Positions 28,355 to 64,000 of a stretch of 64,000 nucleotides of DNA are shown here, in pieces. Position numbers and translations under genes: made by a program. Each line of letters starts with the position of its first letter. The stretch's first letter is position 1. Below the pieces are notes generated by a model. It made no database searches. It saw only the letters and a list, made by a program, of their open reading frames with translations, and was not told the origin of the DNA. The stretch is from Globodera rostochiensis (Eukaryota; Nematoda; Chromadorea; Rhabditida; Heteroderidae), in assembly GCA_018350325.1 (NCBI GenBank), contig JAEVLN010000018.1, positions 438,185 through 502,184 of the forward strand, read 5' to 3'.

Positions 28355-28427
28355 GCCCCGGTAGCTCAGTTGGAAGAGCTGCCCACGGATTGGGTGGAGG
28401 ACGTGGGTTCGAGTCCCACCCGGGGCT
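28355..28427 (+). tRNA. tRNA-like sequence, copy 1 of 3 (probably not a working tRNA)
   Basis: The acceptor stem GCCCCGG/CCGGGGC, D-arm GCTC-AGTTGGAA-GAGC, T-arm GTGGG-TTCGAGT-CCCAC and a downstream TTTT stop for RNA polymerase III are all good. The anticodon arm does not fold: CCCAC-GGATTGG-GTGGA has a mismatch, lacks the invariant U33 and needs an extra base before it. No anticodon can be assigned with confidence. Confidence 0.55.
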
Positions 28428-28639: not shown

Positions 28640-28712
28640 GCCCCGGTAGCTCAGTTGGAAGAGCTGCCCACGGATTGGGTGGAGGACGTGGGTTCGAGTC
28701 CCACCCGGGGCT
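28640..28712 (+). tRNA. tRNA-like sequence, copy 2 of 3 (probably not a working tRNA)
   Basis: Identical over the 73 bases to the first copy, 285 bp downstream. The repeat unit also includes flanks starting GGATTTGTGTGTTCCGCTGG and ending GGATGGAGCTGTA. Confidence 0.55.
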
Positions 28713-28918: not shown

Positions 28919-28991
28919 GCCCCGGTAGCTCAGTTGGAAGAGCTGCCCACGGATTGGGTGGAGGACGTGGGTTCGAGTCCCACCCGGGGCT
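28919..28991 (+). tRNA. tRNA-like sequence, copy 3 of 3 (probably not a working tRNA)
   Basis: Identical over the 73 bases to the other two, 279 bp after copy 2. The tandem unit breaks off about 30 bp downstream, where the CAGGAT palindrome begins. Confidence 0.55.
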
Positions 28992-49100: not shown

Positions 49101-52100
49101 GATTTGTTGCAGACACTTTGGTCTATATGTAATAAATCTAAAATTTTCACAAAGCATTCTATTTCAATTTTTTAAATTCTTCATAGTAATTTCCGACGCA
49201 AATTTTTGCTTTTTCATTGCACTTAACTCGACTTGAGGAATCGATTATTAGCTTTTTTTCTTCGGGTCAGTCACCAACGTCATTTCCTAGTGATTATTGA
49301 ATATATGGCCTGAAACCATGATTGAACAACGATTTGTTGCAGACACTTTGGTCTATATGTAATAAATCTAAAATTTTCACAAAGCATTCTATTTCAATTT
49401 TTTAACTTCTTCATAGTAATTTCCGACGCAAATTTTTGCTTTTTCATTGCACTTAACTCGACTTGAGGAATCGATTATTAGCTTTTTTTCTTCGGGTCAG
49501 TCACCAACGTCATTTCCTAGTGATTATTGAATATATGGCCTGAAACCATGATTGAACAACGATTTGTTGCAGACACTTTGGTCTATATGTAATAAATCTA
49601 AAATTTTCACAAAGCATTCTATTTCAATTTTTTAAATTCTTCATAGTAATTTCCGACGCAAATTTTTGCTTTTTCATTGCACTTAACTCGACTTGAGGAA
49701 TCGATTATTAGCTTTTTTCTTCGGGTCAGTCACCAACGTCATTTCCTAGTGATTATTGAATATATGGCCTGAAACCATGATTGAACAACGATTTGTTGCA
49801 GACACTTTGGTCTATATGTAATAAATCTAAAATTTTCACAAAGCATTCTATTTCAATTTATTAAATTCTTCATAGTAATTTCCGACGCAAATTTTTGCTT
49901 TTTCATTGCACTTAACTCGACTTGAGGAATCAATTATTAGCTTTTTTTCTTCGGGTCAGTCACCAACGTCATTTCCTAGTGATTGAATATATGGCCTGAA
50001 ACCATGATTGAACAACGATTTGTTGCAGACACTTTGGTCTATATGTAATAAATCTAAAATTTTCACAAAGCATTCTATTTCAATTTATTAAATTCTTCAT
50101 AGTAATTTCCGACGCAAATTTTTGCTTTTTCATTGCACTTAACTCGACTTGAGGAATCAATTATTAGCTTTTTTTCTTCGGGTCAGTCACCAACGTCATT
50201 TCCTAGTGATTGAATATATGGCCTGAAACCATGATTGAACAACGATTTGTTGCAGACACTTTGGTCTATGGTAATAAATCTAATTTCACAAAGCATTCTA
50301 TTTCAATTTTTTAACTTCTTCATAGTAATTTCCGACGCAAATGTTTGCTTTTTCATTGCACTTAACTCGACTTGAGGAATCGATTATTAGCTTTTTTCTT
50401 CGGGTCAGTCACCAACGTCATTTCCTAGTGATTATTGAATATATGGCCTGAAACCATGATTGAACAACGATTTGTTGCAGACACTTTGGTCTATGTAATA
50501 AATCTAAATTTCACAAAGCATTCTATTTCAATTTTTTAAATTCTTCATAGTAATTTCCGACGTAAAATGTTTGCTTTTTCATTGCACTTAACTCGACTTG
50601 AGGAATCGATTGTTAGCTTTTTTCTTCGGGTCAGTCACCAACGTCATTTCCTAGTGATTATTGAATATATGGCCTGAAACCATGATTGAACAACGATTTG
50701 TTGCAGACACTTTGGTCTATATGTAATAAATCTAAAATTTTCACAAAGCATTCTATTTCAATTTTTTAAATTCTTCATAGTAATTTCCGACGCAAATTTT
50801 TGCTTTTTCATTGCACTTAACTCGACTTGAGGAATCGATTATTAGATTTTTTCTTCGGGTCAGTCACCAACGTCATTTCCTAGTGATTATTGAATATATG
50901 GCCTGAAACCATGATTGAACAACGATTTGTTGCAGACACTTTGGTCTATGGTAATAAATCTAATTTCACAAAGCATCGTAAAATGTTTGCTTTTTCATTG
51001 CACTTAACTCGACTTGAGGAATCAATTATTAGCTTTTTTTCTTCGGGTCAGTCACCAACGTCATTTCCTAGTGATTGAATATATGGCCTGAAACCATGAT
51101 TGAACAACGATTTGTTGCAGACACTTTGGTCTATATGTAATAAATCTAAAATTTTCACAAAGCATTCTATTTCAATTTTTTAAATTCTTCATAGTAATTT
51201 CCGACGCAAATTTTTGCTTTTTCATTGCACTTAACTCGACTTGAGGAATCGATTGTTAGCTTTTTTCTTCGGGTCAGTCACCAACGTCATTTCCTAGTGA
51301 TTATTGAATATATGGCCTGAAACCATGATTGAACAACGATTTGTTGCAGACACTTTGGTCTATATGTAATAAATCTAAAATTTTCACAAAGCATTCTATT
51401 TCAATTTTTTAAATTCTTCATAGTAATTTCCGACGCAAATTTTTGCTTTTTCATTGCACTTAACTCGACTTGAGGAATCGATTGTTAGCTTTTTTCTTCG
51501 GGTCAGTCACCAACGTCATTTCCTAGTGATTATTGAATATATGGCCTGAAACCATGATTGAACAACGATTTGTTGCAGACACTTTGGTCTATGGTAATAA
51601 ATCTAATTTCACAAAGCATTCTATTTCAATTTTTTAAATTCTTCATAGTAATTTCCGACGCAAATTTTTGCTTTTTCATTGCACTTAACTCGACTTGAGG
51701 AATCGATTGTTAGCTTTTTTCTTCGGGTCAGTCACCAACGTCATTTCCTAGTGATTATTGAATATATGGCCTGAAACCATGATTGAACAACGATTTGTTG
51801 CAGACACTTTGGTCTATGTAATAAATCTAAATTTTCACAAAGCATTCTATTTCAATTTTTTAACTTCTTCATAGTAATTTCCGACGTAAAATTTTTGCTT
51901 TTTCATTGCACTTAACTCGACTTGAGGAATCGATTGTTAGCTTTTTTCTTCGGGTCAGTCACCAACGTCATTTCCTAGTGATTATTGAATATATGGCCTG
52001 AAACCATGATTGAACAACGATTTGTTGCAGACACTTTGGTCTATATGTAATAAATCTAAAATTTTCACAAAGCATTCTATTTCAATTTTTTAAATTCTTC

Positions 52101-55100
52101 ATAGTAATTTCCGACGCAAATGTTTGCTTTTTCATTGCACTTAACTCGACTTGAGGAATCGATTATTAGCTTTTTTCTTCGGGTCAGTCACCAACGTCAT
52201 TTCCTAGTGATTATTGAATATATGGCCTGAAACCATGATTGAACAACGATTTGTTGCAGACACTTTGGCTATATGTAATAAATCTAAAATTTCACAAAGC
52301 ATTGTATTTCAATTTTTTAACTTCTTCATAGTAATTTCCGACGCAAATTTTTGCTTTTTCATTGCACTTAACTCGACTTGAGGAATCGATTGTTAGCTTT
52401 TTTCTTCTGGTCAGTCACCAACGTCATTTCCTAGTGATTATTGAATATATGGCCTGAAACCATGATTGAACAACGATTTCTTTGGTCTATATGTAATAAA
52501 TCTAAAATTTTCACAAAGCATTCTATTTCAATTTTTTAAATTCTTCATAGTAATTTCCGACGTAAAATGTTTGCTTTTTCATTGCACTTAACTCGACTTG
52601 AGGAATCGATTGTTAGCTTTTTTCTTCGGGTCAGTCACCAACGTCATTTCCTAGTGATTATTGAATATATGGCCTGAAACCATGATTGAACAACGATTTG
52701 TTGCAGACACTTTGGTCTATATGTAATAAATCTAAAATTTTCACAAAGCATTGTATTTCAATTTTTTAAATTCTTCATAGTAATTTCCGACGCAAATTTT
52801 TGCTTTTTCATTGCACTTAACTCGACTTGAGGAATCGATTATTAGCTTTTTTCTTCGGGTCAGTCACCAACGTCATTTCCTAGTGATTATTGAATATATG
52901 GCCTGAAACCATGATTGAACAACGATTTGTTGCAGACACTTTGGTCTATGGTAATAAATCTAATTTCACAAAGCATCGTAAAATGTTTGCTTTTTCATTG
53001 CACTTAACTCGACTTGAGGAATCGATTATTAGCTTTTTTTCTTCGGGTCAGTCACCAACGTCATTTCCTAGTGATTATTGAATATATGGCCTGAAACCAT
53101 GATTGAACAACGATTTGTTGCAGACACTTTGGTCTATATGTAATAAATCTAAATTTTCACAAAGCATTGTATTTCAATTTTTTAACTTCTTCATAGTAAT
53201 TTCCGACGCAAATTTTTGCTTTTTCATTGCACTTAACTCGACTTGAGGAATCGATTGTTAGCTTTTTTCTTCGGGTCAGTCACCAACGTCATTTCCTAGT
53301 GATTATTGAATATATGGCCTGAAACCATGATTGAACAACGATTTGTTGCAGACACTTTGGTCTATGGTAATAAATCTAATTTCACAAAGCATTCTATTTC
53401 AATTTTTTAAATTCTTCATAGTAATTTCCGACGTAAAATGTTTGCTTTTTCATTGCACTTAACTCGACTTGAGGAATCGATTGTTAGCTTTTTTCTTCGG
53501 GTCAGTCACCAACGTCATTTCCTAGTGATTATTGAATATATGGCCTGAAACCATGATTGAACAACGATTTGTTGCAGACACTTTGGTCTATGGTAATAAA
53601 TCTAATTTCACAAAGCATTCTATTTCAATTTTTTAATTCTTCATAGTAATTTCCGACGCAAATTTTTGCTTTTTCATTGCACTTAACTCGACTTGAGGAA
53701 TCGATTGTTAGCTTTTTTCTTCGGGTCAGTCACCAACGTCATTTCCTAGTGATTATTGAATATATGGCCTGAAACCATGATTGAACAACGATTTGTTGCA
53801 GACACTTTGGTCTATATGTAATAAATCTAAAATTTTCACAAAGCATTGTATTTCAATTTTTTAATTCTTCATAGTAATTTCCGACGCAAATTTTTGCTTT
53901 TTCATTGCACTTAACTCGACTTGAGGAATCGATTGTTAGCTTTTTTCTTCGGGTCAGTCACCAACGTCATTTCCTAGTGATTATTGAATATATGGCCTGA
54001 AACCATGATTGAACAACGATTTGTTGCAGACACTTTGGTCTATGGTAATAAATCTAATTTCACAAAGCATTCTATTTCAATTTTTTAAATTCTTCATAGT
54101 AATTTCCGACGTAAAATGTTTGCTTTTTCATTGCACTTAACTCGACTTGAGGAATCGATTGTTAGCTTTTTTCTTCGGGTCAGTCACCAACGTCATTTCC
54201 TAGTGATTATTGAATATATGGCCTGAAACCATGATTGAACAACGATTTGTTGCAGACACTTTGGTCTATGGTAATAAATCTAATTTCACAAAGCATTCTA
54301 TTTCAATTTTTTAAATTCTTCATAGTAATTTCCGACGTAAAATATTTGCTTTTTCATTGCACTTAACTCGACTTGAGGAATCGATTGTTAGTTTTTTTCT
54401 TCGGGTCAGTCACCAATGTCATTTCCTAGTGATTATTGAATATATGGCCTGAAACCATGATTGAACAACGATTTGTTGCAGACACTTTGGTCTATATGTA
54501 ATAAATCTAAAATTTTCACAAAGCATTGTATTTCAATTTTTTAAATTCTTCATAGTAATTTCCGACGTAAAATGTTTGCTTTTTCATTGCACTTAACTCG
54601 ACTTGAGGAATCGATTGTTAGCTTTTTTCTTCGGGTCAGTCACCAACGTCATTTCCTAGTGATTATTGAATATATGGCCTGAAACCATGATTGAACAACG
54701 ATTTGTTGCAGACACTTTGGTCTATATGTAATAAATCTAAAATTTTCACAAAGCATTGTATTTCAATTTTTTAAATTCTTCATAGTAATTTCCGACGCAA
54801 ATTTTTGCTTTTTCATTGCACTTAAGTCGACTTGGGGAATCGATTATTAGCTTTTTTCTTCGGGTCAGTCACCAACGTCATTTCCTAGTGATTATTGAAT
54901 ATATGGCCTGAAACCATGATTGAACAACGATTTGTTGCAGACATTTTGGTCTATGGTAATAAATCTAATTTCACAAAGCATTCTATTTCAATTTTTTAAA
55001 TTCTTCATAGTAATTTCCGACGTAAAATGTTTGCTTTTTCATTGCACTTAACTCGACTTGAGGAATCGATTATTAGCTTTTTTTTCTTCGGGTCAGTCAC

Positions 55101-55905
55101 CAACGTCATTTCCTAGTGATTATTGAATATATGGCCTGAAACCATGATTGAACAACGATTTGTTGCAGACACTTTGGTCTATATGTAATAAATCTAAAAT
55201 TTTCACAAAGCATTGTATTTCAATTTTTTAACTTCTTCATAGTAATTTCCGACGCAAATTTTTGCTTTTTCATTGCACTGAACTCGACTTGAGGAATCGA
55301 TTGTTAGCTTTTTTCTTCGGGTCAGTCACCAACGTCATTTCCTAGTGATTATTGAATATATGGCCTGAAACCATGATTGAACAACGATTTGTTGCAGACA
55401 CTTTGGTCTATGGTAATAAATCTAATTTCACAAAGCATTCTATTTCAATTTTTTAAATTCTTCATAGTAATTTCCGACGTAAAATGTTTGCTTTTTCATT
55501 GCACTTAACTCGACTTGAGGAATCGATTGTTAGCTTTTTTCTTCGGGTCAGTCACCAACGTCATTTCCTAGTGATTATTGAATATATGGCCTGAAACCAT
55601 GATTGAACAACGATTTGTTGCAGACACTTTGGTCTATGGTAATAAATCTAATTTCACAAAGCATTCTAGTTCAATTTTTTAAATTCTTCATAGTAATTTC
55701 CGACGCAAATTTTTGCTTTTTCATTGCACTTAACTCGACTTGAGGAATCGATTGTTAGCTTTTTTCTTCGGGTCAGTCACCAACGTCATTTCCTAGTGAT
55801 TATTGAATATATGGCCTGAAACCTTGATTGAACAACGATTTGTTGCAGACACTTTGGTCTATGGTAATAAATCTAATTTCACAAAGCATTCTATTTCAAT
55901 TTTTT
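46153..55905 (+). repeat. satellite family B array
   Basis: About 44 units of roughly 230 bp (some deleted to 175-225). Each runs from GGCCTGAAACCATGATTGAA through GATTTGTTGCAGACACTTTGG, ATAGTAATTTCCGACGCAAA, TTGCACTTAACTCGACTTGA, CTTCGGGTCAGTCACCAACG to GTCATTTCCTAGTGATTATTG. A left zone (46.1-50 kb) with TATATGTAATAAATC is followed by a right zone (50.2-55.9 kb) where units with TATGGTAATAAATC and CGACGTAAAATG become common. Two short units (50899, 52899) share the same internal deletion, AAAGCATCGTAAAATG. No coding or RNA-gene signal. Confidence 0.95.
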
Positions 55906-56527
55906 AAATTCTTAAAATAAATGCAGCAATAACTGCATTTTATCGGCAAATTTACGTAATACGGTCCTATTTGTCCTTCTTCACATATTTCTAGAAAAAC
56001 ATGAGTATAGGCTATAATACATCTTGTTTTATGATTTTGTTTTTGTAACTTATTAAGTAGATTTTTTGCCAACTTTCTTTGCTTGTAACTTTTTTCATAT
56101 TTGTTTTCGGTCGTAATTTTTGCGGATTCGAACTCAGCTCGACGAGTTGAATCTATTGCTTGTATTTTAACTAGTTTTCGACCAAAGTTTTATGCATTTT
56201 TTAAATTCTTAAAATAAATGCAGCAATAACTGCATTTTATCGGCAAATTTACGTAATACCGTCCTATTTGTCCTTCTTCACATATTTCTAGAAAAATCAA
56301 ACATATATGTCATCTTGTTTTATGATTTTGTTTTTGTAACTTATTAAGTAAATTTTTTGCCAACTTTCTTTGCTTGTAACTTTTTTCATATTTGTTTTCG
56401 GTCGTAATTTTTGCGGATTCGAACTCAGCTCGACGAGTTGAATCTAGTGCTTGTATTTTAACTAGTTTTCGACCAAAGTTTTATGCATTTTTTAAATTCT
56501 AAAAATAAATGCTGCAATAACTGCAAA
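55906..56527 (-). repeat. satellite family A, two inverted units
   Basis: Just over two family A units on the minus strand (ATAAATGCAGCAATAACTGC read forward). They lie between the family B array and the second direct A array. The left junction falls within ATTTTTTAAATTCTT, which both families contain. The right junction joins AATAACTGCA to AAGTTACAAAAAC. Confidence 0.92.
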
Positions 56528-59500
56528 GTTACAAAAACAAAATCATAAAACAAGATGACATAATGTTTGGTTTTTCTAGAAATATGTGAAGAAGGACAAA
56601 TAGGACCGTATTACGTAAATTTGCCGATAAAATGCAGTTATTGCTGCATTTATTTTAAGAATTTAAAAAATGCATAAAACTTTGGTCGAAAACTAGTTAA
56701 AATACAAGCAATAGATTCAACTCGTCGAGCTGAGTCCGAATCCGCTAAAATTACGACCGGAAACAAATATGAAAAAAGTTACAAGCAAAGAAAGCTGGCA
56801 AAAAATGTACTTAATAAGTTACAAAAACAAAATCATAAAACATGATGCATTATAGCATATACTCATGTTTTTCTAGAAATATGTGAAGGAGGACAAATAG
56901 GACCTTATTACGTAAATTTGCTGATAAAATGCAGTTATTGCAGCATTTATTTTTAGAATTTAAAAAATGCATAAAACTTTGGTCGAAAACTAGTTAAAAT
57001 ACAAGCAATAGATTCAACTCGTCGAGCCGAGTCCAAATCCGCTAAAATTACGACCGGAAACAAATATGAAAAAAGTTACAAGCAAAGAAAGTTGGCAAAA
57101 AATTTACTTAACAAGTTACCAAACAAAATCATAAAACAAGATGACATATATGTTTGATTTTTCTAGAAATATGTGAAGAAGGACAAATAGGACCGTATTA
57201 CGTAAATTTGCCGATAAAATGCAGTTATTGCTGCATTTATTTTAAGAATTTAAAAAATGCATAAAACTTTGGTCGAAAACTAGTTAAAATACAAGCAATA
57301 GATTCAACTCGTCGAGCTGAGTTCGAATCCGCAAAAATTACGACCGAAAACAAATATGAAAAAAGTTACAAGCAAATTAAGTTGGCAAAAAATGTACTTA
57401 ATAAGTTACAAAAACAAAATCATAAAACAAGATGTATTATAGCCTATACTCATGTTTTTCTAGAAATATGTGAAGAAGGACAAATAGGACCGCGTTACGT
57501 AAATTTGTCGATAAAATGCAGTTATTGCTGCATTTATTTTAAGAATTTAAAAAATGCATAAAACTTTGGTCGAAAACTAGTTAAAATACAAGCAATAGAT
57601 TAAACTCGTCGAGCTGAGTCCGAATCCGCTAAAATTACGACCGGAAACAAATATGAAAAAAGTTACAAGCAAAGAAAGTTGGCAAAAAATTTACTTAACA
57701 AGTTACCAAACAAAATCATAAAACAAGATGACATATATGTTTGATTTTTCTAGAAATATGTGAAGAAGGACAAATAGGACCGTATTACGTAAATTTGCCG
57801 ATAAAATGCAGTTATTGCTGCATTTATTTTAAGAATTTAAAAAATGCATAAAACTTTGGTCGAAAACTAGTTAAAATACAAGCAATAGATTCAACTCGTC
57901 GAGCTGAGTTCGAATCCGCAAAAATTACGACCGAAAACAAATATGAAAAAAGTTACAAGCAAATTAAGTTGGCAAAAAATGTACTTAATAAGTTACAAAA
58001 ACAAAATCATAAAACAAGATGTATTATAGCCTATACTCATGTTTTTCTAGAAATATGTGAAGAAGGACAAATAGGACCGCGTTACGTAAATTTGTCGATA
58101 AAATGCAGTTATTGCTGCATTTATTTTAAGAATTTAAAAAATGCATAAAACTTTGGTCGAAAACTAGTTAAAATACAAGCAATAGATTAAACTCGTCGAG
58201 CTGAGTCCGAATCCGCTAAAATTACGACCGGAAACAAATATGAAAAAAGTTACAAGCAAAGAAAGTTGGCAAAAAATTTACTTAATAAGTTACCAAAAAA
58301 ATCATAAAACAAGATGACATATATGTTTGATTTTTCTAGAAATATGTTAAGAAGGACAAATAGGACCGTATTACGTAAATTTGCCGATAAAATGCAGTTA
58401 TTGCTGCATTTATTTTAAGAATTTAAAAAATGCATAAAACTTTGGTCGAAAACTAGTTAAAATACAAGCAATAGATTCAACTCGTCGAGCTGAGTTCGAA
58501 TCCGCAATAATTACGACCGAAAACAAATATGAAAAAAGTTACAAGCAAATTAAGTTGGCAAAAAATGTACTTAATAAGTTACAAAAACAAAATCATAAAA
58601 CAAGATGACATATATGTTTGATTTTTCTAGAAATATGTGAAGAAGGACAAATAGGACCGTATTACGTAAATTTGCCGATAAAATGCAGTTATTGCTGCAT
58701 TTATTTTAAGAATTTAAAAAATGCATAAAACTTTGGTCGAAAACTAGTTAAAATACAAGCAATAGATTCAACTCGTCGAGCTGAGTTCGAATCCGCAATA
58801 ATTACGACCGAAAACAAATATGAAAAAAGTTACAAGCAAATTAAGTTGGCAAAAAATGTACTTAATAAGTTACAAAAACAAAATCATAAAACAAGATGTA
58901 TTATAGCCTATACTCATGTTTTTCTAGAAATATGTGAAGAAGGACAAATAGGACCGCGTTACGTAAATTTGTCGATAAAATGCAGTTATTGCAGCATTTA
59001 TGTTTAGAATTTAAAAAATGCATAAACTTTGGTCGAAAACTAGTTAAAATACAAGCTTTAGATTCAACTCGTCGAGCTGAGTCCAAATCCGCTAAAAAAA
59101 CGACCGGAAACAAATATGAAAAAAGTTACAAGCAAAGAAAGTTGGCAAAAAATTTACTTAATAAGTTACAAAAACAAAATCATAAAACAAGATGACATAT
59201 ATGTTTGATTTTTCTAGAAATATGTGAAGAAGGACAAATAGGACCGTATTACGTAAATTTGCCGATAAAATGCAGTTATTGCTGCATTTATTTTAAGAAT
59301 TTAAAAAATGCATAAAACTTTGGTCGAAAACTAGTTAAAATACAAGCAATAGATTCAACTCGTCGAGCTGAGTTCGAATCCGCAAAAATTACGACCGAAA
59401 ACAAATATGAAAAAAGTTACAAGCAAATTAAGTTGGCAAAAAATGTACTTAATAAGTTACAAAAACAAAATCATAAAACAAGATGTATTATAGCCTATAC

Positions 59501-61539
59501 TCATGTTTTTCTAGAAATATGTGAAGAAGGACAAATAGGACCGCGTTACGTAAATTTGTCGATAAAATGCAGTTATTGCTGCATTTATTTTAAGAATTTA
59601 AAAAATGCATAAAACTTTGGTCGAAAACTAGTTAAAATACAAGCAATAGATTAAACTCGTCGAGCTGAGTCCGAATCCGCTAAAATTACGACCGGAAACA
59701 AATATGAAAAAAGTTACAAGCAAAGAAAGTTGGCAAAAAATTTACTTAATAAGTTACCAAAAAAATCATAAAACAAGATGACATATATGTTTGATTTTTC
59801 TAGAAATATGTTAAGAAGGACAAATAGGACCGTATTACGTAAATTTGCCGATAAAATGCAGTTATTGCTGCATTTATTTTAAGAATTTAAAAAATGCATA
59901 AAACTTTGGTCGAAAACTAGTTAAAATACAAGCAATAGATTCAACTCGTCGAGCTGAGTTCGAATCCGCAATAATTACGACCGAAAACAAATATGAAAAA
60001 AGTTACAAGCAAATTAAGTTGGCAAAAAATGTACTTAATAAGTTACAAAAACAAAATCATAAAACAAGATGTATTTAGCCTATACTCATGTTTTTCTAGA
60101 AATATGTGAAGAAGGACAAATAGGACCGCGTTACGTAAATTTGTCGATAAAATGCAGTTATTGCAGCATTTATTTTTAGAATTTAAAAAATGCATAAACT
60201 TTGGTCGAAAACTAGTTAAAATACAAGCAATAGATTCAACTCGTCGAGCTGAGTCCAAATCCGCTAAAAAACGACCGGAAACAAATATGAAAAAAGTTAC
60301 AAGCAAAGAAAGTTGGCAAAAAATTTACTTAATAAGTTACAAAAACAAAATCATAAAACAAGATGACATAATGTTTGATTTTTCTAGAAATATGTGAAGA
60401 AGGACAAATAGGACCGTATTACGTAAATTTGCCGATAAAATGCAGTTATTGCTGCATTTATTTTAAGAATTTAAAAAATGCATAAAACTTTGGTCGAAAA
60501 CTAGTTAAAATACAAGCAATAGATTCAACTCGTCGAGCTGAATCCGAATCCGCAAAAATTACGACCGAAAACAAATATGAAAAAAGTTACAAGCAAATTA
60601 AGTTGGCAAAAAATGTACTTAATAAGTTACAAAAACAAAATCATAAAACAAGATGTATTATAGCCTATACTCATGTTTTTCTAGAAATATGTGAAGAAGG
60701 ACAAATAGGACCGCGTTACGTAAATTTGTCGATAAAATGCAGTTATTGCAGCATTTATTTTTAGAATTTAAAAAATGCATAAAACTTTGGTCGAAAACTA
60801 GTTAAAATACAAGCAATAGATTCAACTCGTCGAGCTGAGTCCAAATCCGCTAAAATTACGACCGGAAACAAATATGAAAAAAGTTACAAGCAAAGAAAGT
60901 TGGCAAAAAATTTACTTAATAAGTTACAAAAACAAAATCATAAAACAAGATGACATAATGTTTGATTTTTCTAGAAATATGTGAAGAAGGACAAATAGGA
61001 CCGTATTACGTAAATTTGCCGATAAAATGCAGTTATTGCTGCATTTATTTTAAGAATTTAAAAAATGCATAAAACTTTGGTCGAAAACTAGTTAAAATAC
61101 AAGCAATAGATTCAACTCGTCGAGCTGAATCCGAATCCGCAAAAATTACGACCGAAAACAAATATGAAAAAAGTTACAAGCAAATTAAGTTGGCAAAAAA
61201 TGTACTTAATAAGTTACAAAAACAAAATCATAAAACAAGATGTATTATAGCCTATACTCATGTTTTTCTAGAAATATGTGAAGAAGGACAAATAGGACCG
61301 CGTTACGTAAATTTGTCGATAAAATGCAGTTATTGCAGCATTTATTTTTAGAATTTAAAAAATGCATAAAACTTTGGTCGAAAACTAGTTAAAATACAAG
61401 CAATAGATTCAACTCGTCGAGCCGAGTCCAAATCCGCTAAAATTACGACCGGAAACAAATATGAAAAAAGTTACAAGCAAAGAAAGTTGGCAAAAAATTT
61501 ACTTAACAAGTTACCAAACAAAATCATAAAACAAGATGA
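56528..61539 (+). repeat. satellite family A, second direct array (dimeric higher-order repeat)
   Basis: About 17 units. Variants alternate regularly: GACATATATGTTTGATTTTT units (about 57150, 57740, 58320, 59200, 59785, 60365, 60955) with TGTATTATAGCCTATACTCA units (about 57430, 58020, 58900, 59480, 60070, 60650, 61240). The homogenised period is therefore about 580 bp, with one break at 58320-58620 where two of the first type are adjacent. The array ends abruptly in the gag fragment. Confidence 0.93.
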
Positions 61540-62159
61540 CGGGCGTGCGTTGACTGATTGTTTGTTTGCGCGGATTGCTGATGGCCGTACTCTCTCATTA
61601 CTTCTTGAATTTGTGTTTCCTTTCGGACTGCTTCGTTGAGTACGTTGCGGAACTTAGTGGTGCTCCACTGCGCAGGATCCTCCCCTTTTTTGTTGAGTAT
61701 TGTCCGGAGGAATGCTGGCGTCAGCTTCTTTTCCAGCATGAGGAAGGTTGGCGGACCTTCGAAATCCTCTCCAGCGTTATTGAGTTCACGCGTGAGTCGT
61801 TCGAGCTGGAGCAGGAATTCTTGTGTGTCGCGAAGACTTTTGCAGGCCTTGAGATTGGCCAGTTCGAAGTGCAGAGCTCTGATGTGCTCTTCCGGTGCGC
61901 CGTATGTGTCTTTTAGCAACTGAAGTACGACGTCGTAGTTCTGGTCTTCCAGCCTGAATCCGGAGACGAGTTTTCGGGCTTCTCCTCCAAGCATGTTGCG
62001 CAGGAGATTGAATTTTTCAGCTTTGCTGATCGGCTGACTTCCGATTGCCGATTTGAACGACTCGTAAAACTCCGGCCATTGACGCTTTTGGCCGGATTTC
62101 GCTCTTATCTCCCCCAACTGATCAAATATGTCAGTCAATTTCTGCTCACCCCACCTTCT
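61540..62159 (-). pseudogene. BEL/Pao retrotransposon gag fragment (DUF1759 region)
   Basis: About 206 codons open on the minus strand show the retrotransposon peptide domain typical of Pao-type gag (DUF1759): KRQWPEFYESFKSAIG, EKFNLLRNMLGGEARKLVSG, LLKDTYGAPEEHIRALHFEL, TRELNNAGED, then WSTTKFRNVLNEAVRKE. It has no start of its own. At its 5' side the frame runs directly into the LTR at 62159/62160, and at its 3' side into satellite A at 61540. It lacks the N-terminal gag part, zinc knuckles, protease and polymerase. It is a broken copy of an element related to the plus-strand one next to it. Confidence 0.85.
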
Positions 62160-62177
62160 TGTAAACAATTTTGGCCC

Positions 62178-62211
62178 CTTTATAAGCCCGCGGCTCTTCA
62201 CCACAAATCAG
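62178..62211 (+). promoter_or_regulatory. LTR core promoter (TATA box and initiator)
   Basis: TTTATAAGCC (TATA at 62181) is followed 27-29 bp later by ATCAGTTC (initiator-like TCAGT, A at 62210), the spacing expected of a TATA-dependent start. If used, the LTR R region begins near 62210. Confidence 0.5.
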
Positions 62212-62599
62212 TTCAGTCTCATTCATTGACCACATTCAAGGCATTCAGCCGCTCATAAGCAATTTCACTCTCGACCTTCCTATACCCCCCCCCCTCACTC
62301 TGCACAACATGACAATCCACACATTTGCCAATCAATATCCGTCAGTCCAAATCCATTTATCTCTTTAGGCCAACTCATCCAAAATCCATATCACACATTT
62401 CAAATCCATTCCTTGTCTGGCCAAATCCGCAAATTCAAACTTTACTCATTTCTGGGGACTCCCGGGTCATCCAATTCCGGTTTTTAATTCCACCCAACTG
62501 ACCAATTGAGCAATTCACCATTGTCCCCCACTAGTCAATTGTGTGATCACCTAAATCCTCGGTGATCACTTTTGTGTTTCACATTTCGAGAGAAATCTC

Positions 62600-62621
62600 G
62601 GTTTAATTACCCAAGTTTGAG
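62600..62621 (+). other. exact SL1 spliced-leader sequence inside the LTR
   Basis: All 22 bases of nematode SL1 are present, starting GGTTTAATTACC and ending CAAGTTTGAG. The next bases are CTGATAAAATTG, not the GT donor of an SL RNA gene, and no Sm site follows. It therefore looks like a mature, already spliced leader that became part of the element. Confidence 0.85.
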
Positions 62622-62774
62622 CTGATAAAATTGTGCGAAATCTTGGCGTTTTTATTCCTACAATTGGCCCAAATCCCGACCACTTCCTCCGGCCCACCAA
62701 AGCACTACCGTGTGCGAATCTTGGAGGAACTCCCATCCCATCTCAACCAACCGATCGGAGAGGAGTTCCGACAG

Positions 62775-62792
62775 TGGCGACCCTGGCAGGAC
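62775..62792 (+). other. candidate primer-binding site
   Basis: TGGCGACCCTGGCAGGAC starts one base after the LTR end. It opens with TGG, complementary to the CCA end of tRNAs. The matching tRNA was not identified. Confidence 0.55.
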
Positions 62793-63517
62793 TTGTGAAC
62801 AACAACCTGCGCAACAACAAACATTTTCAAATTGGTGGCTTTGATTTTCTTTTGGGGGGAAAATCAAAAAATTCGTTGAGTGTCGACTCTCCGTGGTCGA
62901 GCTTAACCGAATCAATCAAAAGGGGTTGGCAAAGTGGTTAAAAAAGGTTGGACTAGGCTCTCTCCGTGGTGCCAGTTTAACTAGGGGTGGTGTACTGTTC
63001 GCTCTTCGTGGCGAAGGTATATCAAATTTGGGAAAAATTCGTGCTTTCCGAGTGTACTGTCTGATCTTCGTGTCAGAGGTACATTTCAGCGGTTGTACTG
63101 TCTGATCTCCGTGTCAGAGGTATATCCTTCTACAGTTGTACTGTCTGATCTCCGTGTCAGAGGTACATCCTTCAGTCACTGGTTGTAGTGCTAGAACTCC
63201 GTGTCAGCTCAGCATTGCAACAACATCGTTCACGCCGAACAACTCAATCAATCAACGGCAATAAAGCGGCTGAACAAAAGCACGAACCAGCAACACAAAG
63301 CAAGTCTGCAACAACAAATTCAAGCAGCACATCAAGGGCCAAACCGGCAACGACGCCAATCAAGCCTTGGACAACGAGTCCAAGCAGCACAACAAGTGCT
63401 TAAAGCTGCACCGACGCCAAACAAGCTCTTGAACAACAAGTTCAAGCAGTACAACGAACAAGCTCTTGAACATCAAGTTCAATCAGTACAGCAAGCAACA
63501 CAACCAGCAACATAACA
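62793..63517 (+). other. untranslated leader of the retrotransposon
   Basis: It lies between the primer-binding-site candidate and the gag ATG. It contains the stem-loop repeats and a CAACAA/AAGCAGCACAACAAG-rich stretch (63225-63510) of imperfect repeats. No convincing protein. Confidence 0.55.
62991..63210 (+). repeat. five stem-loop repeats in the retrotransposon leader
   Basis: Units starting near 62991, 63053, 63094, 63137 and 63184 follow TGTACTGTCTGATCTCCGTG, then TCAGAGGTACAT. In each, GTAC-TCTGA can pair with TCAGA-GTAC around a TCTCCGTG loop. The outer units are more diverged. They lie between the primer-binding site and the gag start. Confidence 0.75.
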
Positions 63518-64000
63518 ATGTCGGGGCCAATCCAGCAAAAATTGGGAGCGGCACTCAAGGTTCTGACTCGAGCACGCACAGCGGCAGAATTGAAACTCCT
63601 GGCCGACAACAACGCATCGTATCTCGAGAACGCGCTCAAGTTCGAGACACAGCTCGAAAAGGCACAACAAGAGGCAAAACACTTGGAGATCTTTATGGAC
63701 GACATACGCGAAGCGTCCAGTGCATGGGCCGACCTGCTCCGCAAACTACCAGCAACAGACAGAGATGCTGGAGACGCCGAATTCAACGTGTTCAACAAGA
63801 AAGAGAAAATAACCGACAAGGCGGACGAAGCATCAACCAAACTTCGGGACTTGCGCGACCTCATCGGCACACTCACGGTCCAAGCCCGGCTTTACCGCAG
63901 CAGGGCGGACAAAGAAGAGCGAGATGCTCAATCATCGCATGCACAAGCATTACAACAGAATGCCACGGCACCAACGCGCAACAATGCGCCGGCTTTCACA
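63518..64000 (+). CDS. gag N-terminus of BEL/Pao-like retrotransposon (partial at window end)
   Basis: The frame is open from ATG at 63518 to the window end (161 codons). It begins MSGPIQQKLGAALKVLTRA and is highly charged and helical (SYLENALKFETQLEKAQQEA; DEASTKLRDLRDLIGTL), with coiled-coil character over residues 20-140, then becomes Gln/Asn/Ala-rich. This is the usual N-terminal part of Pao-type gag that precedes the DUF1759 region. The leader immediately upstream encodes only Gln-rich, unconserved frames. The start is chosen as the first ATG of the long frame. The rest of the element lies right of the window. Confidence 0.75.
   Translation, partial: MSGPIQQKLGAALKVLTRARTAAELKLLADNNASYLENALKFETQLEKAQQEAKHLEIFMDDIREASSAWADLLRKLPATDRDAGDAEFNVFNKKEKITDKADEASTKLRDLRDLIGTLTVQARLYRSRADKEERDAQSSHAQALQQNATAPTRNNAPAFT

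What the first reader, a model, noticed from the sequence alone, without database searches (positions are those of the whole stretch)
62600..62621. Nematode SL1 spliced leader embedded in an LTR
All 22 bases of SL1 lie within the LTR of a BEL/Pao-like element, about 390 bp after the predicted start site and 152 bp before the LTR end. A chance match in 64 kb is negligible. No GT donor follows, so this is a mature leader. Either a trans-spliced element RNA was reverse transcribed and its leader fixed in the LTR, or the element carries its own SL1 to look like host mRNA. I do not recall such an LTR in nematodes.
Basis: partly seen in the sequence, partly recalled or inferred. Interest (0 to 1): 0.88.

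Follow-up and report, generated by a model that had tools for sequence, protein, structure and literature searches.

The report
Host spliced leader in retrotransposon LTRs
In a cyst-nematode genome, dozens of mobile elements carry an exact copy of the worm's own 22-letter spliced leader inside their terminal repeats, probably because their RNA receives that leader and is copied back into DNA together with it.

Summary
Observation confirmed: all 22 bases of SL1 lie at 62600-62621 in the LTR of a short BEL/Pao-type element with a gag ORF. It is not an accident of one copy. The genome has 122 exact SL1; 48 are SL RNA genes. Of the other 74, I read 71: 65 lie in LTRs or LTR-like sequence, 6 in SL RNA pseudogenes. 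The LTRs fall into about 15 groups, many sharing no alignable flank. A poly(A)-type signal starts 2-22 nt after SL1 in 32 of 36 loci. Homology between LTR groups stops at SL1 in two mosaic LTRs. Three unrelated LTRs repeat the SL1 tail; two are exactly what trans-splicing onto an AG inside an embedded SL1 would leave.

Best reading: element RNA is trans-spliced, SL1 becomes the start of R, and the LTR copy of SL1 is the homology for the first strand transfer, so SL1 is rewritten in each cycle. No RNA data were available.

Prior art: SL1 beside PAO retrotransposons is already reported in Brugia malayi (PMC7181701), with leader addition inferred. New as far as searched: LTR position, generality, mosaic LTRs, tail duplications.

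The parts
62097..62773 (+). 5' LTR of the element, its left end missing (full family LTRs are about 690-950 bp)
   Evidence: pair alignment with the 3' LTR and comparison with family LTRs
62181..62186 (+). TATA box (TATAAG), 419 bp before SL1
   Evidence: lies in a stretch (62161-62187 but for one column) invariant in 13 distinct LTR copies
62208..62212 (+). TCAGT initiator-like site, predicted transcription start at 62210
   Evidence: sequence and spacing from the TATA box; inference, no RNA data
62600..62621 (+). SL1, 22 of 22 bases; proposed 5' end of R
62624..62629 (+). GATAAA, poly(A)-signal-like, 2 nt after SL1
   Evidence: AATAAA or GATAAA at +2 to +22 in 32 of 36 loci listed there
62775..62790 (+). 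primer-binding site TGGCGACCCTGGCAGG; tRNA-Arg-like partner is recalled, not tested
   Evidence: position after the LTR end, also in related LTRs
63518..64000 (+). start of the gag ORF, which runs out of the window; DUF1759 lies in the same frame at C10:502224-502622
   Evidence: no Pfam match in the first 160 aa
61524..62096 (-). neighbour, not part of the element: antisense DUF1759 gag fragment of another BEL element, cut at the LTR

Best explanation
The element is transcribed from a promoter about 390 bp upstream of SL1. The host trans-splices the transcript, so the RNA used for reverse transcription starts with SL1 (inferred). Minus-strand strong-stop DNA then ends in the complement of SL1. 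The 3' end of the RNA also contains SL1, because the poly(A) signal lies just after it in the 3' LTR; SL1 is thus the 5' part of R and the homology for the first strand transfer (inferred). Each cycle writes a fresh, perfect SL1 into both LTRs. When strong-stop DNA moves to another element's RNA, SL1 is the joint, giving LTRs with one family's U3 and another's R-U5. Shown here: position, number, perfection, mosaic breaks, tail duplications. Inferred: trans-splicing of the genomic RNA and transfer at SL1.
For: 65 LTR-like SL1 copies in about 15 groups. SL1 is the longest invariant run in 13 distinct LTR copies, mean identity 0.997 against 0.873 elsewhere, and in pairs such as L058/L085 the only alignable stretch. 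Poly(A)-type signal 2-22 nt after SL1 in 32 of 36 loci. TATA box 311-419 bp upstream in the window family, L001, L080 and L087. Mosaic LTRs: L080-type matches the window family up to the last base of SL1 and L085/L086 from its first; L087 matches the C14/C22 family up to it and L062 from -3 on. SL1+TTTGAG in two unrelated groups, SL1+GTTTGAG in a third; in seven groups the only other tandem duplication of 5 nt or more outside C-rich runs was TCAAT at -39. Brugia malayi authors reached the first half of this inference independently.
Against: No RNA evidence. GAG, the end of SL1, is a weak 3' splice site by recalled consensus, so re-splicing onto it is not obvious. GTTTGAG (C35) is one base off the prediction; a +AG in L095 and a 3-nt loss in L061 at the same boundary are unexplained. 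Slippage could make tail duplications. SL1 being the only shared stretch would focus any homology-driven recombination there. In one search the L080/L085 downstream match did not pass the threshold; it rests on BLAST. In C. elegans the full-length Cer1 RNA is not trans-spliced at its SL1 site (PMC3315495). Most BEL loci do without SL1: by my hand merge, 9 of 43 Peptidase_A17 loci (10 with C80:1742687) have an SL1 within 9 kb.
Confidence: 0.6

Rival explanations
1. SL1 is kept by selection as an internal motif of the element's RNA or DNA (mark of a host-like message, translation aid, or shield against small-RNA silencing). The genomic RNA is not trans-spliced and R begins at the upstream start.
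For: SL1 is perfect where flanks are not; a TATA box lies far upstream in several groups.
Against: Does not predict tail duplications at an internal AG, nor SL1 always next to the poly(A) signal, nor U3/R-U5 exchange at SL1, though the last could be homology alone.
Confidence: 0.18
2. Transcription starts at SL1: the leader works as initiator and internal promoter, as recalled for SL RNA genes of Ascaris, so the RNA begins with SL1 without splicing.
For: Also puts SL1 at the 5' end of R and explains why all 22 bases are kept. A role of the leader in SL RNA gene transcription is recalled from the literature, not read here.
Against: No LTR representative resembles the SL RNA gene upstream region; only the SL pseudogene L003 does. 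A TATA box with conserved context lies 311-419 bp upstream in several groups. Tail duplications are not predicted.
Confidence: 0.1
3. One old capture of a leader, then passive inheritance and recombination between LTRs, with no present role.
For: SL1 beside PAO elements in Brugia and in a cyst nematode here is compatible with age.
Against: SL1 should decay like its flanks. It does not: 52 of 55 matches to ACCCAAGTTTGAGH are full SL1, and 24 of 26 similarity-chosen LTRs are exact.
Confidence: 0.07

Closest known systems
SL1-flanked PAO LTR retrotransposons of Brugia malayi (Nat Commun 2020, PMC7181701; passages seen)
   Same: Exact host SL1 outside SL RNA genes, near Pao-type elements, sometimes on both sides and on the same strand; authors infer leader addition to expressed elements and integration.
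   Different: There it is 'within 1 kb' of 60 elements, 'occasional' as a pair. In the passages seen there is no LTR position, poly(A) spacing, mosaic LTR, tail duplication or role in strand transfer. Supplements were not readable here.
Dinoflagellate retrogenes with DinoSL relicts (review PMC6050394; passages seen)
   Same: A trans-spliced leader is reverse transcribed with its RNA and left in the genome; repeated leaders record repeated rounds.
   Different: Host genes, not LTR elements; relicts decay and no role in strand transfer is proposed in the passages.
Cer1 of C. elegans (PMC3315495; passages seen)
   Same: An LTR element whose RNA can receive SL1.
   Different: Gypsy/Ty3 type; SL1 found on the 2.4-kb spliced mRNA, not on the 8-kb RNA; in the passages SL1 is not said to be encoded in the LTR.
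SL1 loci of Heterodera glycines (PMC6362198, section read; PMC4733053, passages)
   Same: A related cyst nematode with many SL1 loci: 180, of which 22 near an Sm motif (PMC6362198).
   Different: The remaining loci are not assigned to LTRs there; PMC4733053 counts otherwise (218 contigs with SL1 variants, 152 with an Sm-like site).

Membership tests
BEL/Pao LTR retrotransposon | gag with DUF1759 | tested here: met
   DUF1759 at C10:502224-502622, in frame with the ORF from 63518, between the two LTRs
BEL/Pao LTR retrotransposon | pol with Peptidase_A17 | tested here: not met
   no A17 match between the LTRs of the window element, so it is BEL-derived and probably non-autonomous; six 11.2-12-kb relatives with SL1 on both sides have A17. 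Reverse transcriptase itself was not searched
BEL/Pao LTR retrotransposon | two LTRs starting TG and ending CA, followed by a primer-binding site | tested here: met
   3' copy starts TGTCGGATTTAG; both end CCGACA; 5' copy lacks its start
BEL/Pao LTR retrotransposon | 4-6 bp target-site duplication | tested here: inconclusive
   none at the window element (left end lost); by eye GTTC around the C3 pair and ACAT around C67 L093/L094
SL1-associated PAO element as in Brugia malayi | SL1 on the same strand at both ends of a Pao-type element | tested here: met
   window element and 12 further elements or arrays, chosen for having SL1 in both or all LTRs
SL RNA gene | GT donor and Sm site after SL1 | tested here: not met
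   window copy continues CTGATAAA; SL RNA genes here continue GTACTTGG with ATAAATTTTGG
trans-spliced retroelement RNA | RNA 5' end at SL1 | not testable with these tools
   no RNA data held

The most novel reading that the evidence does not exclude
A host exon supplied in trans is the transfer repeat of a retrotransposon: these BEL elements use trans-spliced SL1 as the start of R, so their first strand transfer depends on the host's leader. Because all such elements share it, SL1 is a universal joint that lets unrelated U3 and R-U5 modules be shuffled and lets gag-only elements be copied by autonomous ones.
Probability: 0.42. Interest if true: 0.78.

Novelty: new variant of a known kind. Interest (0 to 1): 0.62.

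Why it matters
If right, it shows how an LTR element can live in a host that replaces the 5' ends of its transcripts: it turns the replacement into the repeat it needs. It would explain many dispersed SL1 copies in nematode genomes, which confuse SL RNA gene annotation, and it predicts exact RNA 5' ends and recombination joints that RNA and genome data can test. A filarial nematode and a cyst nematode both showing it suggests an old or recurrent arrangement.

Tried and rejected
A hairpin just upstream of SL1 looked striking in some groups, but 6 of 22 representatives reach p<0.1 against 5 of 22, 3 of 22 and 1 of 19 in control windows ending at -60, -100 and -140; dropped. Exact SL1 in viral contigs and genome contigs: none. 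Rfam in the window at gathering score: three tRNAs only. Other 5' ends on the SL1 tail: 55 matches to ACCCAAGTTTGAGH, of which 52 full SL1, 2 with one mismatch, 1 (C10:1646458) not examined; the reversed control gave 4. SL1-less BEL as control: two 501-base stretches (L126, L127) lack CCCAAGTTTGAG, but their position was guessed and LTR limits were not established, so this is weak. L062 was considered as a retrocopy starting at SL1; its match to L087 ends at what looks like an LTR end, not in PBS and gag. The C8/C23 repeat with SL RNA upstream sequence, SL1 and GTACTTGAAAATG was set apart as an SL RNA pseudogene repeat and excluded (6 loci). L001 against the window family is not counted as mosaic because its U3 start is homologous. 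L067/L073 and L067/L111 also break near the end of SL1, but L067 may be truncated and is not counted. L066 (downstream like L080 for 49 nt) and L084 were judged too short.

Full report
OBSERVATION. SL1 is present without mismatch at 62600-62621 on the + strand and nowhere else in the window with up to 3 mismatches; 100 shuffles gave none. The window lies at C10:438185-502184 of a 92.6-Mb assembly in 80 contigs. Nearest named proteins are from cyst nematodes: the antisense gag fragment is 81% identical to a Heterodera trifolii protein over 81% of the query, 86% over 66% to H. schachtii, 86% over 32% to Globodera rostochiensis and 90% over 27% to G. pallida. An EGF-type ORF in the window has, among mostly vertebrate and unnamed matches, a G. 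pallida one at 83% over 20%. The species was not identified.

ELEMENT. The LTRs are window 62097-62773 and C10:505220-505831; the pair alignment is 677 columns, 99.7%, no mismatch and one gap. The 5' copy has lost its left end and abuts an antisense DUF1759 gag fragment of another BEL element whose profile match ends at 62096. A primer-binding site and leader follow, then an ORF from 63518 that is in frame with a DUF1759 match at C10:502224-502622 in an open frame of 1093 aa; its first 160 aa match no Pfam family. No Peptidase_A17 lies between its LTRs; reverse transcriptase was not searched. Relatives 11.2-12 kb apart in SL1 on C3, C9, C14, C22, C31 and C66 have Peptidase_A17 between the two SL1 sites. 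By my hand merge of the 49 A17 matches into 43 loci, 9 (10 with C80:1742687) have an SL1 within 9 kb, so most BEL loci here do without it.

GENOME-WIDE COUNT. There are 122 exact SL1. 48 continue GTACTTGG as SL RNA genes do. Of the remaining 74, 52 are followed by a base other than G and 22 by G. I read 71 of 74: all 52, and 19 of 22; C31:45353 and two unlisted sites were not read. Six are an SL RNA pseudogene repeat on C8 and C23; 65 are in LTRs or LTR-like sequence. LTR status is shown by paired copies for 29 sites; for others it rests on a partner, similarity or context, and L063, L067 and L072 are least certain.

CONSERVATION. Searching with the LTR and not with SL1 gave 27 matches, 26 copies: 24 have SL1 exact, C2 has one mismatch, C21 lacks the region. 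In 13 distinct copies that cover the query, 21 of 22 SL1 columns are invariant, the longest invariant run; mean identity is 0.997 against 0.873 elsewhere. 12 of 593 windows of 22 nt are as conserved, in three places: SL1, the TATA region (62161 on) and 62222 on. Between groups such as L001/L058, L058/L085 and L078/L085 the only aligned stretch touching SL1 is SL1 itself, with a base or two. Taking a match on both flanks as the criterion, 22 LTR representatives form about 15 groups (my grouping). Loci found by exact SL1 are biased to exact copies, so one search is the fair test.

POSITION. In LTRs with measured limits SL1 ends 66-171 bp before the LTR end and starts 452-788 bp after its start (503 in the truncated window copy). 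In 36 listed loci, not independent of each other, AATAAA begins 2-22 nt after SL1 in 24 and GATAAA at +2 in 8; 4 (L061, L063, L067, L069) have neither. A TATA box lies at -402 to -419 in the window family, -311 in L001, -414 in L080 and -416 in L087; other representatives had no hit, or hits outside or of unknown relation to the LTR. So at least these groups have a promoter far upstream, leaving an outron-like stretch before SL1.

BREAKS AT SL1. L080-L083 (two C56 elements) match the window family from -466 to exactly +21, the last base of SL1, at 69-73%, and not beyond. From the first base of SL1 they match L085/L086 (76% over 72 bp; L081 and L083 against L086 69% over 486 bp), and their U3 tip is also L085-like (73%). 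L087 matches the C14/C22/C16/C56 family up to +21 (78-82%; only about 145 bp of that side was fetched) and L062 from -3 to +230 (84%). In a stricter test of 24 representatives (22 LTR, one SL pseudogene, one SL RNA gene; 276 pairs), 10 pairs match on both sides, 6 upstream only, 3 downstream only and 257 on neither. The upstream-only pairs are L080 with two window-family members, L087/L105, two with L067 (perhaps truncated) and the pseudogene with the SL RNA gene; the downstream-only pairs are L062/L087 and two within the window family's own group. L080/L085 did not pass downstream in that test. Transfer of strong-stop DNA at SL1 would give such mosaics, but SL1 being the only shared stretch would also focus other recombination there.

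FOOTPRINTS OF RE-SPLICING. C17:439613 and C24:667487, in unrelated groups, read SL1+TTTGAG where relatives join SL1 directly to the corresponding sequence. SL1 has two AGs; splicing a new SL1 onto the first (AAG) of an embedded SL1 gives exactly this. C35:336913 reads SL1+GTTTGAG, one base off. With up to 2 mismatches, four further places match SL1-tail+TTTGAG; they were not examined and the reversed control gave 1. As a control, insertions of 5-40 nt were listed in seven LTR groups (33 loci): 98 records (one event can give several), 10 flagged as tandem duplications; besides the three tails these are C-rich runs and one TCAAT at -39. Slippage is not excluded. A +AG in L095 and a 3-nt loss in L061 at this boundary are unexplained.

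MECHANISM. The most economical account is that the genomic RNA begins with trans-spliced SL1, that R runs from SL1 to the poly(A) site, and that the LTR copy of SL1 is both product and requirement of strand transfer. Neither trans-splicing nor transfer was observed. The rivals are a motif kept by selection, transcription starting at SL1, and passive inheritance.

PRIOR ART. Ten searches were made in an open-licence library. PMC7181701 (passages) reports for Brugia malayi 316 SL1 signatures, 120 not in SL RNA genes, 60 of these within 1 kb of PAO retrotransposons, occasionally two flanking one element on the same strand, and infers that leaders were added to expressed elements and integrated with them. 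The association and half of the inference are therefore known. In what I saw there is no account of LTR position, mosaic LTRs, tail duplications or a role in strand transfer. Older papers, such as those on the Ascaris element Tas (recalled only), are not held. PMC6362198 gives 180 SL1 loci in Heterodera glycines, 22 near an Sm motif; PMC4733053 counts otherwise. The Globodera pallida genome paper PMC4054857 (passages) mentions a Pao-like LTR element and leader usage, not their link, in the passages shown.

VERDICT. Real, family-wide and partly known. The proposed use of a host leader as the transfer repeat is new as far as searched and can be tested with RNA data.

Noticed in passing
window 28355-28427, 28640-28712, 28919-28991: Three tandem tRNA-Asn genes about 280 bp apart, given anticodon ATT by ARAGORN, also found by Rfam; GTT is the anticodon I would expect (recalled).
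   Followed up: no
window 50000-55947 and 56526-61544: Two satellite arrays: period about 228 bp, then alternating 290 and 297 bp, with the arrays partly inverted to each other around 55899-56525. The second array ends near the antisense gag fragment.
   Followed up: no
window 62982-63217: A run of about five degenerate 43-nt repeats in the element's leader between LTR and gag, 63-91% like the reference copy.
   Followed up: no
L003-L005 (C8), L115-L117 (C23): A repeat with SL RNA gene upstream sequence, SL1 and GTACTTG, then unrelated sequence, at matching spacings of about 4.2 and 12 kb on both contigs.
   Followed up: partly
G000 C12:4258591-4283790 and C23:4804578-4823263: Two tandem arrays of SL RNA genes with units of about 1.23 and 1.57 kb.
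   Followed up: partly
L103-L110, L121-L125: In two LTR families SL1 is followed by GT (GTACCCCC, GTTCATTGG), so a cis splice donor right after SL1 is conceivable there.
   Followed up: no
window 62096/62097: Junction of a truncated LTR with a truncated antisense gag of another BEL element; no target-site duplication could be sought there.
   Followed up: partly
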